64,000 bases of DNA from Propionibacteriales bacterium. GTDB taxonomy: Bacteria > Actinomycetota > Actinomycetes > Propionibacteriales > Nocardioidaceae. Positions 40,047 through 44,962 of this stretch are shown here, piece by piece (the first letter of the stretch is position 1; each line of letters starts with the position of its first letter). Below the pieces are notes generated by a model. The model was not told the DNA's origin and made no database searches. It worked only from the letters and a program-made list of their open reading frames with translations. Where the stretch lies: NCBI GenBank assembly GCA_026392455.1, contig JAPLCB010000010.1, positions 62,001 to 126,000 on the forward strand. Reading direction: 5' to 3'. Both the position numbers and the translations under genes were made by a program.

Positions 40047-40328
40047 TCAGGAGACGGTGACGAGCTCGCGGCCCACCAGGTCGTCGAGGAAGGCAACGAT
40101 GTCGTCGCGGCAGGTCTCGGGAGTGACGTCGTACTCGGCGCTGACCAGGATCACCAGCTCCTCGAGCGACTTGGGCGCCTCGAGGTGCTTCCAGAGGGAC
40201 GCGGCGACGTCGCGCAGCCCGTAGTACTCGCCCTGCTCCTGACCCATCATCACGAGCTCGCCGTCCATCTCGACGGCGTTCAGCTCGGGCCGTCGGACGT
40301 AGGTCGTGTCGGGATGGCTGCTGCTCAT
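40047..40328 (-). CDS. PqqD-like RiPP recognition protein (lasso B1-type RRE)
   Basis: A 93-residue protein of the PqqD fold, the stand-alone RiPP recognition element that binds leader peptides in lasso-type pathways. Features: YVRRPELNAVEMDGELVMMG, YGLRDVAASLWKHLEAPKSL, and a C-terminal helix with CRDDIVAFLDDLVGRELV. ATG 40328 overlaps the stop of the kinase gene (ATGA). It is the last gene of the leftward precursor operon and should bind the YxxPxL motif of the precursor at 41760-41879. Confidence 0.9.
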   Translation of the reverse strand: MSSSHPDTTYVRRPELNAVEMDGELVMMGQEQGEYYGLRDVAASLWKHLEAPKSLEELVILVSAEYDVTPETCRDDIVAFLDDLVGRELVTVS

Positions 40329-41236
40329 GCACTCTCCTGAGAATCTCGGGCGATGTCCTGGAGGATCGCCTCTGCGGTGTCCTCGGCGGTCATCGTGGCG
40401 ACGGGGCGGCAGACCCGGGTGACCCGGGCCGCGGAGACAAGCCTGGCGCACTGCTCAAGGTGCTGAGCCATCGGCCCCGGGCCGTGAACCAGCTCGTTGC
40501 GGTAGGTGTGCTCGTGCAGGAGGCTGAAGGTGAGGGCTCCGTGCACGGGCGCCAGGGTCAGGGCATCACCCTCGTGCCGCTCGAGCACGTAGATCCAGCG
40601 CAGGCGGACCGGCTCGGACCGCGACCGTCGTACCGGCAGCTGGAACTTCTCGTGCGAGGTGTGGATCCGTTCCAGGGAGTCCTTGTCGACCCCGAGCCGC
40701 TCCAGGGCGTCGTCCCAGAGCTTGATCCTCGGGTACCCGGTGAGCGCCATCCCGGTCCGGTCGACCGGGACGACGTCGTCGGAGAGGACGTCGAGCCCGC
40801 GCCGGGCGAACTCGGCTGCCAGGGTGGACTTGCCTGCACCGGACCGACCGACCACCACGGCACAGGCGTCCCCGATCCGGACTGCGTTCCCGTGCAGCAC
40901 CAGGTGGTCCCGCTGCATCATCAGCGCCCCCATCATGCTGCCGAGGAGGAAGAGCCGCACCGCGGCGGGATCGGCTCCGGCCACCGGGTCCACGACGATC
41001 TCGCTCCCGGCCCGCACCTCGTAACGGGCGACGTCCGGGACGGCGACCCCGCAGGTGTCGCCCGAGCGCCACAGACCGTGGTCCAGGAGGGGGACGTCGG
41101 CCGGTGGTGCCGCCAGCGGGGCGATCCGGATCCTGACGTCAGCCTGGACCGGTCCGGGCAGCGGCTCGCCGAGGTCGGTCAGCTCGATCTCGCTGCAGAA
41201 CGTGAGCCCGTAGACGGAGTAGAAGAGCGTGCTCAC
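40325..41236 (-). CDS. HPr kinase-like peptide kinase of a lasso-type RiPP cluster
   Basis: A 303-residue P-loop protein related to HPr kinase. The Walker A motif VVVGRSGAGKSTLAAEFARR (about residues 125-144) is followed by the HprK-type LDVLSDDVVPV, and HGNAVRIGD precedes it. GTG 41236 overlaps the stop of the B2 gene (GTGA). In paeninodin-type lasso clusters such kinases phosphorylate the C-terminal serine of the precursor. The precursor here ends in Ser39, so the same action is likely. The N-terminal 110 residues are a poorly conserved domain seen in such RiPP kinases. Confidence 0.87.
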   Translation of the reverse strand: MSTLFYSVYGLTFCSEIELTDLGEPLPGPVQADVRIRIAPLAAPPADVPLLDHGLWRSGDTCGVAVPDVARYEVRAGSEIVVDPVAGADPAAVRLFLLGSMMGALMMQRDHLVLHGNAVRIGDACAVVVGRSGAGKSTLAAEFARRGLDVLSDDVVPVDRTGMALTGYPRIKLWDDALERLGVDKDSLERIHTSHEKFQLPVRRSRSEPVRLRWIYVLERHEGDALTLAPVHGALTFSLLHEHTYRNELVHGPGPMAQHLEQCARLVSAARVTRVCRPVATMTAEDTAEAILQDIARDSQESA

Positions 41237-41709
41237 CGTTTCCGGCTCACCCGGGGCGTCCACGCGAAGGCGCCGACCTCGGTGTACTCACGACCGTTGC
41301 CCCCGGTCACCGTGACGTCTCCTGCATGCACCCAAGCATGGGCGACCAGCGCGCCGGCGTCCCGCCGAACGCCGAAAGAGACCACGTGCGGGATCCGGCG
41401 GGCGGCCAGGAAGGTCCGCGCGGTCAACGCTTGCGGGTAGCAGTCCGACCGCCACGGCGCGTGGGCGGCTGCGGCTTCGACGATCCGGCCGATGTGCGCG
41501 GCCCGGAACTGCTGGGAAGCGCTCAGGACGGGGGCCTGGTGCGTCCCTGGTTCGGCCTGGTTCTCGCCCAGCAGCCGCCGTACGACGGTGAACGGGAGCG
41601 CGAGGATCAGCAGGCGGGTAAAACCGAGAAGGAACCAGGCCGCCGTGAAGCGAACCTGGTCCCTCAGTCCTAGACGGACAAAACCTCGAACCGTACGAAC
41701 GAATCCCAT
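41233..41709 (-). CDS. Lasso peptide biosynthesis B2-type protein (transglutaminase-like leader peptidase)
   Basis: A 158-residue protein. The C-terminal half is the transglutaminase-like fold of lasso B2 proteases, with the catalytic Cys90 in WRSDCYPQALTARTFLAARR, His124 in LVAHAWVHAGD and a candidate Asp131. The N-terminal half is helical with a hydrophobic segment (WFLLGFTRLLILALPFTVV), as is usual. ATG 41709 has GAGGA 9 nt upstream. It should cut off the leader of the precursor with the help of the PqqD-like protein. It starts 50 nt after the precursor stop. Confidence 0.9.
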   Translation of the reverse strand: MGFVRTVRGFVRLGLRDQVRFTAAWFLLGFTRLLILALPFTVVRRLLGENQAEPGTHQAPVLSASQQFRAAHIGRIVEAAAAHAPWRSDCYPQALTARTFLAARRIPHVVSFGVRRDAGALVAHAWVHAGDVTVTGGNGREYTEVGAFAWTPRVSRKR

Positions 41710-41759
41710 GGAACGAAGTCCTCGTGACACCCGAAGGTGCCCTTGAGTGGCTGGAGCCG

Positions 41760-41879
41760 TCAGCTACCGAGCGGGGGGAACGGGATCGAAACCCCGATAC
41801 CCAGGTCGATGTCGCTGGTGGCCCGCAGGCTGAGCGTCTCCAGCTTCGGAGCGCTGTACGCCTTCTCAGAACCGGTCAT
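41760..41879 (-). CDS. Lasso-like RiPP precursor peptide
   Basis: A 39-residue peptide starting at ATG 41879 with a strong Shine-Dalgarno (AGGAG at 41887-41891). The leader has the RRE-recognition motif YSAPKL (residues 8-13; consensus YxxPxL). Thr21 at position -2 suggests cleavage after Ser22, giving the core DIDLGIGVSIPFPPLGS. The core lacks Asp or Glu at positions 7-9, which every lasso ring needs, and ends in Ser39, the expected target of the adjacent kinase. A longer GTG start at 41966 is open but lacks a good RBS. It lies directly upstream of the B2 gene. Confidence 0.85.
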   Translation of the reverse strand: MTGSEKAYSAPKLETLSLRATSDIDLGIGVSIPFPPLGS

Positions 41880-42050
41880 CGTGGAGCTCCTGTCGGTTGT
41901 TGCCTTCTCAATCTTCCTCAACGATTCGGCACCCAGAAAGGTACGGATTGTTTGAGGGAGATCCACGAGGAATCCGTCACGGGGAAAGTCAGGCTACCCG
42001 ACTTGCACGTTCGCACTCCGTCAGCGGTGCGCGACTCCTACCCTTGCCGG
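41880..42050. promoter_or_regulatory. Divergent promoter region of the RiPP cluster
   Basis: This 171-bp region separates the leftward precursor-B2-kinase-PqqD operon from the rightward nucleotidyltransferase-exporter pair. It is clearly AT-richer than the flanking genes, especially at 41885-41970, and must hold both promoters. No inverted-repeat operator or regulator gene was recognised nearby. Confidence 0.5.
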
Positions 42051-43262
42051 GTGCAGATCACCCCGGGACCGTCCCCTGAAGCCGTCCGGCGAGTGCGTTC
42101 CTGGGTCCGTGGCGCACTGCGGCTGGAGGCTGGTCATTCGTGGCTGCCCGAACCGACCACCGAGACGACCGACGACCTCATGGAAGCGGTCCGGCGCCAC
42201 CGGGTCGCGGAGCTGCTCGGGAGCCAGGCGGCAGGCCTGGACCTCCCGGACGAGATCCGGCAGCCGATCGCCGATCTCCGGGCGGTCAGCCGCCGGGCTC
42301 TGATGGTCCAGGTCCTCGAGACCGGCCGCCTGACCGGGTTGCTCGCCGGTGCCGGGATCGCCAGCCTGGCCATCAAGGGACCCGCGCTCGCGGTGCAGAC
42401 GACGGGAGACCCAGCGGCACGGGGCTCGGGAGACATCGACCTGCTGGTTGATCCTGATCAGGTCCAGCAGGCGCACCAGGTCCTTCTGGACAGCGGGTGG
42501 TCGCTGCGTCCTGGCTACGACATCGCCCCGGGCACGTGGGCCTGGCGGCACGTGATGGGCGCTTTCAACGCGCTGACGTACGACGGACCTGGGAGCGCGG
42601 TCGACCTGCACTGGCGACTCGACCCGACCCTGGATGCGCTGCCGGTGTTCGCCGAGGCCTGGGAGCGGCGGGTGCCGGTCGACCTGGGTGGCGTCGTGGT
42701 CGACACGCTCTCGCGCGCGGACCTGCTGGGGCACGCCAGCCTGCACGCGGCCAAGGACTCGTGGCGGTGGATGCGCAGCCTGGTCGACGTGCACCGGATC
42801 GCCGCCGACCCGGCCACGTGGGACCGGTCCTGGAGCCGGGATCCCTTGCGCCGGCTGGAGGTCAGCACCTTGGCTGTGACCCGCTTCGTCGTCGGACTGC
42901 CCGGTGGTGTGCCCGCCGAGGTACTGGCCCGGCTCGACCAGGTACCGGCCTCGGTGCTGCTCCGTGCGGTCGCGGCCCAGGAACGACCGACGGCCGCTGA
43001 GAACCCCTTCCCGGGCAGTGAGAGCGTCCGGTTGCTGCGCTACATGCTGGAGGCCAGCCCGACCCCGCGCGACCTGCGGCACTCCGCGGTGAGCACGATG
43101 CTCCCGGTGAAGTCCGTCCTCGGGGTCGACGCGAAGAGCGCCTGGAGCGGTGTGCCGCTGACGCTGTGGGCGCGGGTTCGCAGGCTCCAGGTCCGTAGCG
43201 TCGCGTGGGCCAAGCGGTCGCCGTCGGCCGAGATCGACACGATGATCAGGTCGCGGCCGTGA
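42051..43262 (+). CDS. RiPP-associated nucleotidyltransferase-family protein
   Basis: A 403-residue protein of the uncharacterised nucleotidyltransferase group (NTP_transf_5) often found in lasso clusters with a kinase. The catalytic-type motif is LAIKGPALAVQTTGDPAARG, then SGDIDLLVDPDQ, matching the G[GS]...D.D pattern of polymerase-beta-like nucleotidyltransferases. It continues with VDLHWRLDPTLDALPVFAEA and LLGHASLHAAKDSWRWMRSL. GTG 42051 was chosen as start since the open frame further upstream lacks conserved features. It may add a nucleotidyl group to the phosphorylated peptide. The stop overlaps the ABC gene start (GTGA). Confidence 0.82.
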   Translation: MQITPGPSPEAVRRVRSWVRGALRLEAGHSWLPEPTTETTDDLMEAVRRHRVAELLGSQAAGLDLPDEIRQPIADLRAVSRRALMVQVLETGRLTGLLAGAGIASLAIKGPALAVQTTGDPAARGSGDIDLLVDPDQVQQAHQVLLDSGWSLRPGYDIAPGTWAWRHVMGAFNALTYDGPGSAVDLHWRLDPTLDALPVFAEAWERRVPVDLGGVVVDTLSRADLLGHASLHAAKDSWRWMRSLVDVHRIAADPATWDRSWSRDPLRRLEVSTLAVTRFVVGLPGGVPAEVLARLDQVPASVLLRAVAAQERPTAAENPFPGSESVRLLRYMLEASPTPRDLRHSAVSTMLPVKSVLGVDAKSAWSGVPLTLWARVRRLQVRSVAWAKRSPSAEIDTMIRSRP

Positions 43263-44962
43263 TCCGGAGCGCCGGGTTGTGTCTGCGAGAGATGGCCGAC
43301 ACCGTCGGTTCGGCGCGAGTGGCAGCGCTGCTGGTGCTGCAGTTCGTGGTGGCACTGCTGGAGGGCCTGGGACTGGTGCTGCTGGTGCCGGTGATCCAGG
43401 CGCTCGGCGGTGCCGACCGGTTCAGCGTTCCCGGTCTCAGCGTCGAGCTGACGTTGACCCGGGCGTTCTCCCTGGTGATCGCGGTCGTGGTGCTGCGCGG
43501 ACTGGGCCAGTGGTGGGCGATGGTGCTCGCCGTCGACATCCGCCTCGCCACCGTGGACCGGCTGCGGCTCGGTCTGATCGACGATCTGTACGGCTCGGAC
43601 TGGACCTACCTCGCGGCGCAGCGGCGCAGCGAGGTGGTGCAGAGCCTGACCACGAACGTCGAGCGCGCGCAGAGTGCGGTCGCGATGGTTCTGCGGCTCT
43701 TCGTCGGCACCTTCGTCCTGATCGCGACGGCGGCGGTCGGCGTCCTGGTGGCCCCGGTGGTCGGCGGCCTCGCTCTCGCCGCGGTGGTCCTGGTCCTCCT
43801 GCTCGCGGCGCGATCGACCCGGGGTGCGACGGCGCTGGGCCAGGTGATGTCCGAACGGATCGCTGGCTTCGGGGCCACCGTCTCGGACTCGTTGGCCTCA
43901 GCCCGGGTGATGCGGGCGCACGGAGCGGAACGAGCCTGGTCCGAGCTGGTCGCAGCCGAGGCGGCGCGGGTTCGCGAGGTACGCCGCACCTTCGTTGCGC
44001 GTTCCTCCATGGTCTCCTCGACGCTCGGTGTGGTCGGTGTCCTGGCCGTGCTGGTCCTGATCCTGATCGGGCGCGAGGTGGGACTCTCGCTCGCGGAGCT
44101 GGCCACCCTGCTGGTGGTCGCGACCCGGTTGCTCGCGTCCGGTCAGAACCTGCTGGTCGCGGCGCAGACCTTCGCCAACGACGTACCGGCCCTGGAGGCG
44201 TTGCTGACCTTCCAGGCAGAGGCGCGCCAGCACCCCGAGGTCGCGAGCCCGTCGCTCGACCCGGCCACGGTCGGGCCTCAGGTCGACCGTGAGGGGCGCC
44301 GCCGGGCCGTCGCGCTGCTGGAGCTCCGCGACGTCGGCGTCACCTACGACGGCGGCGACCTCCCGGCCCTGGCCGGGATCGACCTGGAGGTTCCGTACCG
44401 GGGCCTGGTCACCGTCACCGGCCCGAGTGGTTCGGGCAAGAGCACCCTGCTGGACGTGATCCTCGGACTTCTTCGCCCGGGTACCGGTGAAGTTCTGGTC
44501 GACGGGGTGGCCGTCGCCGATCTCGCTGCCTGGCGCCGCCGGATCGGGTACGTCGCCCAGCAGACCGTCCTGGTCCCCGGGACGGTGTGGCAGAACCTGG
44601 CGTGGTCGATGCAGCCTGGGGAGACCCTCACCGAGGAGACCGCGTGGGAGGCGCTCCGCCTGGCCTGCCTGGACGAGGTCGTCCGCGGCCTTGCCGGCGA
44701 GCTGCAGGCGCCGCTGCAGGAGATCGCCGGCCTCTCCGGCGGCGAGCAGCAGCGACTGGCAATCGCGCGAGCCCTCGTCCGCCGGCCGGAGCTGCTGGTC
44801 CTGGACGAGGCCACCAGCGGCCTCGATGCCGCGACCGAGGCGGCGGTGCTGGCCAACCTGCTCGACGGTGAACGGGCGGTCCTGATGGTGACCCACCGGG
44901 CCCCGAGCGACCGGCCCGGCGTGCTGCTGCGTCTCGAGAACGGAATTGGAACGATCAAGTAG
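43259..44962 (+). CDS. ABC exporter (fused membrane and ATPase domains), RiPP export
   Basis: A 567-residue half-transporter. Residues about 1-310 form a type I exporter membrane domain with six helices. Residues about 345-567 are the ATPase: Walker A VTGPSGSGKSTLLDVILGLL, Q-loop VAQQTVLVPGTVW, signature LSGGEQQRLAIARALV, Walker B LLVLDEATSGLDA and the H-loop MVTHRAP. GTG 43259 overlaps the stop of the nucleotidyltransferase gene. It most likely exports the mature peptide and gives self-protection, acting as a homodimer. No peptidase (C39) domain is present, as expected if the B2 protein removes the leader. Confidence 0.9.
   Translation: MIRSAGLCLREMADTVGSARVAALLVLQFVVALLEGLGLVLLVPVIQALGGADRFSVPGLSVELTLTRAFSLVIAVVVLRGLGQWWAMVLAVDIRLATVDRLRLGLIDDLYGSDWTYLAAQRRSEVVQSLTTNVERAQSAVAMVLRLFVGTFVLIATAAVGVLVAPVVGGLALAAVVLVLLLAARSTRGATALGQVMSERIAGFGATVSDSLASARVMRAHGAERAWSELVAAEAARVREVRRTFVARSSMVSSTLGVVGVLAVLVLILIGREVGLSLAELATLLVVATRLLASGQNLLVAAQTFANDVPALEALLTFQAEARQHPEVASPSLDPATVGPQVDREGRRRAVALLELRDVGVTYDGGDLPALAGIDLEVPYRGLVTVTGPSGSGKSTLLDVILGLLRPGTGEVLVDGVAVADLAAWRRRIGYVAQQTVLVPGTVWQNLAWSMQPGETLTEETAWEALRLACLDEVVRGLAGELQAPLQEIAGLSGGEQQRLAIARALVRRPELLVLDEATSGLDAATEAAVLANLLDGERAVLMVTHRAPSDRPGVLLRLENGIGTIK

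What the first reader, a model, noticed from the sequence alone, without database searches (positions are those of the whole stretch)
40047..44962. Lasso-type RiPP cluster without a lasso cyclase
Six genes form a compact divergent cluster: precursor, B2 protease, HPr-kinase-like kinase and PqqD-like RRE leftward; nucleotidyltransferase and ABC exporter rightward. This is the full set of a paeninodin-like lasso pathway except the asparagine-synthetase-like C protein that closes the macrolactam. Both edges are occupied by unrelated complete genes (gabT and glgP), so the cyclase is not merely missed nearby. Either the product is a new non-lasso class made by leader removal plus C-terminal phosphorylation and nucleotidylation, or a cyclase acts from elsewhere in the genome. 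I do not know of a described product from such a set.
Basis: partly seen in the sequence, partly recalled or inferred. Interest (0 to 1): 0.92.

Follow-up and report, generated by a model that had tools for sequence, protein, structure and literature searches.

The report
Lasso-type peptide cluster without cyclase
An actinobacterium and its relatives carry the genes to make a lasso peptide except the enzyme that ties the knot, so they probably make a linear peptide that is trimmed and phosphorylated at its last residue, a variant of a peptide class first described in 2026.

Summary
Window 40047-44962 carries a precursor, B2 leader protease, HPr-kinase-like kinase and PqqD-like RRE (minus strand) and an NTP_transf_5 nucleotidyltransferase and ABC exporter (plus strand). 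No Asn_synthase (PF00733) gene was found anywhere in the 3.55-Mb genome (listed 100% complete). This is no local deletion: 22 of 22 close relatives' loci in the same family (Nocardioidaceae) carry the same divergent set (11 with the ABC gene beside it) and none has a cyclase there; one of the 22 genomes has a lasso-type cyclase, in a separate cluster. All 23 precursors share YxxPxLxxL...T and end in Ser; 20 of 23 predicted cores do not fit the classic lasso-ring rule. The kinases form one cyclase-free clade (support 100/98) nested among lasso-peptide kinases. [quoted passage not shown] The nearest described class, Linear Polyphosphorylated Peptides (LPP; Bacillota; 2026), has the same logic but a signal-peptidase-like leader peptidase, another leader motif and a distant kinase. 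So: a new variant, apparently parallel to LPP. The chemistry is inferred; no product was measured.

The parts
40047..40328 (-). RRE, PqqD-like leader-binding protein (B1), 93 aa
   Evidence: PF05402 2.1e-18; nearest solved chains 9x90_B (44.3 bits) and 9x8z_B (38.9 bits); an Asp at the place inferred to be LppB D70, present in 24 of 24 family rows
40325..41263 (-). HPr-kinase-like peptide kinase; likely start GTG 41236
   Evidence: PF07475 1.6e-8; His124, Lys145, Asp162, Asp163 invariant in 21 rows; predicted fold matches PEPCK and HprK/P
41233..41709 (-). B2 leader protease, transglutaminase-like, 158 aa
   Evidence: PF13471 6.1e-22 and NF033537 79.9 bits; Cys90 and His124 invariant in 18 rows
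41760..41879 (-). Precursor peptide, 39 aa; leader 41814-41879 with YxxPxL and Thr(-2), predicted 17-aa core 41763-41813 ending in Ser
   Evidence: single match in the genome
41880..42050 (.). Intergenic stretch between the divergent operons, with the precursor's ribosome-binding site next to 41879
   Evidence: sequence
42051..43262 (+). NTP_transf_5 nucleotidyltransferase-fold protein, 403 aa
   Evidence: PF14907 1.8e-35; predicted fold matches nucleotidyltransferase-fold proteins
43259..44962 (+). ABC exporter (fused membrane and ATPase parts), 567 aa, overlapping the previous gene by 4 bases
   Evidence: PF00005 1.4e-28; PF00664 26.7 bits, just under its cut-off of 28

Best explanation
This is a cyclase-free branch of the phosphorylated lasso-peptide pathways that makes a linear peptide. 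Inferred order: the RRE binds the YxxPxL leader and presents the precursor; the HPr-kinase-like enzyme phosphorylates, perhaps repeatedly, the side chain of the C-terminal Ser; the NTP_transf_5 protein adds a group (hexose or nucleotide) to that phosphate; B2 cuts one residue after the invariant Thr, releasing the predicted core DIDLGIGVSIPFPPLGS; the ABC protein exports it. Without the Asn-synthetase-like C protein no macrolactam is closed. Shown by sequence: gene set, genome-wide lack of C, conservation in relatives, invariant leader motif and terminal Ser, conserved catalytic residues, fold of the kinase. Inferred: every chemical step, their order, the cut site, the added group, export and biological role (unknown).
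For: Gene set. No PF00733 gene in the genome. Same divergent set without C in 22 of 22 family loci. PF00733 matches in 5 of the 24 carrier genomes, of which one is a separate cluster with a lasso-cyclase-like gene (G227, L137), one a full-length match in G113 (not examined further), one QueC and two without a match to a C profile. Terminal Ser in 23 of 23 precursors; the search, which did not ask for Ser, found 17 of 22 loci, and 5 more were read. Terminal Ser is the only S/T/Y of the predicted core in 14 of 23. His-Lys-Asp-Asp of peptide kinases (PMC9266682, passages) invariant in 21 rows. Precursors of cyclase-bearing loci that fit the lasso rule were found in 11 of 24 loci, against 3 of 23 here. 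Kinases of the family form one cyclase-free clade, 25 rows, 100/98.
Against: No product or enzyme activity was measured. Three of 23 cores (L038-L040) do fit Gly1 plus Asp7. The lasso-rule control was picked with a pattern that contains the rule, so it shows only that such precursors exist in cyclase loci; in 13 of 24 control loci it found none, and the candidate precursor beside the cyclase of G227 does not fit the rule either. B2's third catalytic residue could not be assigned. Eleven of 23 loci lack the neighbouring ABC gene. The window's core has a second Ser (position 9). BsfK and LppK phosphorylate Ser3, not the last residue (PMC10368454, PMC13381572), so kinase site cannot be read from family alone.
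Confidence: 0.72

Rival explanations
1. The product is a lasso peptide after all: a cyclase of another family, or one encoded elsewhere, closes the ring.
For: B2, RRE and leader motif are lasso-type; 3 of 23 cores have Gly1 and Asp7; G227 carries a cyclase-bearing cluster as well.
Against: No PF00733 match in the window's genome; 19 of 24 carrier genomes have none at all; the window's core has acidic residues only at 1 and 3; only RRE, kinase, B2, nucleotidyltransferase (with antisense shadows) are shared by all 23 loci.
Confidence: 0.1
2. The set is a decaying lasso cluster that lost its cyclase and makes nothing useful.
For: Patchy: 24 of 245 family genomes; the ABC gene is absent beside 11 of 23 loci.
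Against: Open reading frames and catalytic residues kept across three genera; leader codons under strong purifying pattern, 6 second-position against 105 third-position differences; kinase clade cyclase-free at its base; position kept in the genus: glgP in 8 of 8 and gabT in 7 of 8 other genus g1 loci.
Confidence: 0.08
3. It is an LPP cluster in the sense of Popov et al. 2026 in another phylum.
For: Same logic: RRE, HprK-like kinase, NTP transferase, ABC, no cyclase.
Against: B2 instead of a SipW-like peptidase (tblastn with the comparator's signal peptidase finds none in window or 23 loci); leader lacks the published LPP consensus; kinase 154 bits to the paeninodin-type kinase of L063 against 27.7 to the LPP-type kinase of the same locus, NTP_transf_5 95.5 against 31.2.
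Confidence: 0.1

Closest known systems
Linear Polyphosphorylated Peptides (LPP), Popov et al., Nat Commun 2026, PMC13381572 (outline, first two parts of the text, Discussion and passages read)
   Same: Discrete RRE, YxxP leader, HprK-like kinase, NTP_transf-type protein, MsbA-like transporter, no macrolactam cyclase
   Different: LPP uses a SipW-like signal peptidase, another leader consensus, phosphorylates Ser3, is stated to be restricted to Bacillota; here B2, terminal Ser, Actinomycetota, kinase of another lineage
Phosphorylated lasso peptides paeninodin and pseudomycoidin (review PMC9266682, passages read)
   Same: RRE, B2, kinase with His-Lys-Asp-Asp, C-terminal Ser, NTP_transf-type protein, ABC
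   Different: They have the C cyclase and ring-compatible cores; none here
Bsf cluster of Bradymonas sediminis (PMC10368454, passages read)
   Same: RRE, B2, kinase, nucleotidyltransferase, ABC; RRE stimulates the kinase
   Different: Has bsfC; Ser3 phosphorylated; Ile(-2) in place of Thr(-2)

Membership tests
Lasso peptide cluster | Asn-synthetase-like C cyclase | tested here: not met
   No PF00733 match in the genome; 0 of 22 family loci
Lasso peptide cluster | RRE (B1) and B2 leader protease | tested here: met
Lasso peptide cluster | Leader YxxP motif and Thr(-2) | tested here: met
   Invariant in 23 rows
Lasso peptide cluster | Core with small residue 1 and Asp/Glu at 7-9 | tested here: not met
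   Window: acidic only at 1 and 3; family 3 of 23 fit; cut site assumed from Thr(-2)
Lasso peptide cluster | Threaded macrolactam product | not testable with these tools
   needs mass spectrometry or NMR
LPP | Linear, no cyclase, RRE + HprK-like kinase + NTP transferase + transporter | tested here: met
LPP | SipW-like signal peptidase as leader peptidase | tested here: not met
   (window and 23 loci; whole genome not searched); B2 present instead
LPP | Leader consensus YxxPxVLxHQxIxFETxxS | tested here: not met
   Family has YxxPxLExLSLxxT
LPP | RRE or kinase in the LPP clade | tested here: inconclusive
   Pairwise scores favour paeninodin type; no tree with LPP proteins was built
Paeninodin-type phosphorylated RiPP | Kinase His-Lys-Asp-Asp and C-terminal Ser | tested here: met
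Paeninodin-type phosphorylated RiPP | Phosphate on the C-terminal Ser | not testable with these tools
   needs mass spectrometry

The most novel reading that the evidence does not exclude
The set makes surface-tethered linear peptides: the phosphoserine at the C-terminus is the acceptor or leaving group by which the NTP_transf_5 protein, acting like an FKRP/LicD-type sugar-phosphate transferase, joins the peptide through a phosphodiester to a sugar or surface glycan. The alternating acid/aliphatic cores (DIDIDIDI, GIGIGIGS) would then be strand-forming surface or metal-binding peptides rather than secreted toxins, and loss of the exporter gene in one genus would be explained by a shared exporter.
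Probability: 0.1. Interest if true: 0.85.

Novelty: new variant of a known kind. Interest (0 to 1): 0.6.

Why it matters
Lasso leader proteases and RREs are usually taken as signs of a lasso peptide. Here they serve a family with no cyclase, kept for long enough to spread over three genera, so genome miners who ask for PF00733 will miss it. With LPP it suggests that phosphorylated linear peptides arose more than once from lasso-type machinery. It gives a clean natural system, without a ring, in which to ask what the NTP_transf_5 protein really adds to phosphoserine, an open question for paeninodin-type clusters and LPP alike.

Tried and rejected
Deletion only in this strain: rejected, 0 of 22 relatives' loci have C. 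Cyclase elsewhere in the genome: no PF00733 match. Second precursor served by the same enzymes: profile A2 finds only this one in the genome. Empty site beside glgP in 14 non-carriers of the genus: inconclusive; 11 genomes gave 12 loci, and in one (L138, G071) gabT lies next to glgP but on the opposite strand, in the other 11 loci gabT was not seen; so no clean empty site. Solved-structure sequence searches with B2 and the nucleotidyltransferase: no match. Kinase sequence profile reaches HprK only weakly, 1.4e-5. Weak PF00733 matches in G053, G006, G078: G078 is QueC; the other two have no match to the C profile (the QueC frame scores 11 bits, E 5.7e-4). LPP kinase of L063 was too partial for the kinase tree and was left out. 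Rows left out of that tree: matches with under 180 profile positions, and L050 (same place as L137). The label 'C-minus' there is also given to loci cut short by contig ends (for example L133) and to L135, where PF00733 matches lie nearby but the C profile is weak. L052 and L028 are the same genome. Papers not held: PMC6993621 and PMC4919450. Paper searches for such a set; only LPP came close.

Full report
Observation. The window holds, leftward, the precursor (41760-41879), B2 (41233-41709), kinase (40325-41263) and RRE (40047-40328), and rightward the NTP_transf_5 protein (42051-43262) and an ABC exporter (43259-44962). Pfam and NCBIfam support each assignment except the precursor, which matches no family. 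The flanks are an aminotransferase class III gene and a DUF3417/phosphorylase gene. Neighbouring genes overlap by a few bases, as in translationally coupled operons (sequence).

The cyclase is absent. PF00733 has no match in the whole 3,552,019-base genome, listed as 100% complete, while the search rings in 11 of 14 control genomes. A B2 search over 245 genomes of the family found 24 carriers, the window's own included. Twenty-two were read over 9-16 kb (L025-L046; L047 is the divergent G113 locus). All 22 have RRE, kinase, B2 and, divergently, the NTP_transf_5 gene; 11 have the ABC gene next to it; 0 have a C gene by profile. With a single C protein as tblastn query the window and the 23 loci give only two short matches at E 0.45 and 0.55, while 30 of 53 other loci ring. 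Fourteen C proteins from those loci trained the profile, so the tblastn is the independent control. Genome-wide, 5 of the 24 carriers have a PF00733 match: G227 has a second, cyclase-bearing cluster (L137; NCBIfam lasso cyclase 4e-16, under its cut-off), G113 a full-length match not followed, G078 is QueC, G053 and G006 do not match the C profile.

The family. Carriers fall in three genera; in the window's genus 10 of the 24 genomes listed carry a B2. In that genus glgP adjoins in 8 of 8 and gabT in 7 of 8 other loci; 11 loci of genus g6 share a different neighbourhood. Beyond RRE, kinase, B2 and NTP_transf_5 no gene is common to all 23 loci at the threshold used, so no hidden cyclase travels with the set.

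Precursors. A motif search that asked only for a YxxP-type stretch found short genes upstream of B2 in 17 loci; 5 more were read directly. With the window all 23 hold Tyr, Pro, Leu, Leu and Thr at fixed places and end in Ser. Taking the cut one residue after that Thr, cores are 14-30 residues; the last Ser is the only S/T/Y in 14 of 23; 3 of 23 fit the classic ring rule. Many cores alternate acidic or Gly with Ile/Leu/Val. Codon differences are concentrated at third positions in the leader (18/6/105) and spread in the core (73/40/94).

Enzymes. The kinase keeps His124, Lys145, Asp162 and Asp163 in all 21 rows; the review PMC9266682 (passages) names His-Lys-Asp-Asp as catalytic in lasso kinases. 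Its model (mean pLDDT 92.0) matches PEP carboxykinases (1.4e-7) and HprK/P (1.2e-4). B2 keeps Cys90 and His124 in 18 rows. The NTP_transf_5 model (91.3) matches nucleotidyltransferase-fold proteins, best 1.6e-4, and more weakly FKRP, a sugar-phosphate transferase (0.017). An Asp at the place inferred to be LppB D70, which holds the leader Tyr, is present in 24 of 24 family RREs and in the LPP-type RRE of L063, but is Gln or His in four paeninodin-type RREs (residue roles from PMC13381572; the mapping is mine).

Kinship. In a tree of 81 kinase rows, 25 rows of the family (L047 and the duplicate L052 included) form a clade with 100/98 support and no cyclase locus; next lie a Blastomonas kinase and three gammaproteobacterial or proteobacterial ones, two without C nearby (L053, L054) and one with C (L056). 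L053 has a precursor ending in Ser; L054 lies on a 7.6-kb contig, and L053's genome has weak PF00733 fragments. In the order search 14 of 293, in the phylum search 9 of 396 genomes matched; apart from the family, E-values were 1e-67 or weaker. Of nine such distant genomes, four have PF00733 near the kinase (G522, G440, G735, G532) and all nine have some PF00733 match.

Known systems. LPP (PMC13381572; outline, two parts, Discussion, passages) is a published cyclase-free set with a SipW-like peptidase, stated to be restricted to Bacillota, whose kinase phosphorylates Ser3. L063 carries an LPP-like set (its peptidase matches TIGR02228, 53.1 bits, cut-off 51.85) next to a paeninodin-like one, which allows a direct comparison: kinase 27.7 against 154 bits, NTP_transf_5 31.2 against 95.5, RRE 43.1 against 55.5, ABC 104 against 200. 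The window's set is thus closer to the lasso side and seems to have lost the cyclase on its own; with one LPP comparator this is suggestive, not proved.

Verdict. A real, conserved, cyclase-free relative of phosphorylated lasso pathways, most likely making a linear, C-terminally phosphorylated peptide. New variant of a known kind. Function unknown; chemistry untested.

Noticed in passing
L131, L132, L134 (G501, G533, G609): A second actinobacterial group with RRE, B2, kinase, NTP_transf_5 and ABC but no C nearby; its precursors are different, Gly/Pro-rich and do not end in Ser. G501 and G533 have only short PF00733 matches genome-wide.
   Followed up: partly
L053:2876-8068 and L054:2199-7086: Cyclase-free B2-kinase-RRE-ABC-NTP_transf_5 sets in a proteobacterium and in Leucothrix pacifica, whose kinases are the nearest outside Nocardioidaceae.
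   Followed up: partly
L047:5991-11201 (G113): A divergent relative with a sulfotransferase (PF00685), two kinase-like genes and a candidate precursor ending in Ser; arrangement differs from the rest.
   Followed up: no
L087-L103: Sphingomonas loci with an HprK-like kinase beside an NTP_transf_5 gene but no B2, RRE or C seen.
   Followed up: no
L063:1-4603: An LPP-like set directly before a paeninodin-like lasso cluster in Paenibacillus silvestris.
   Followed up: partly
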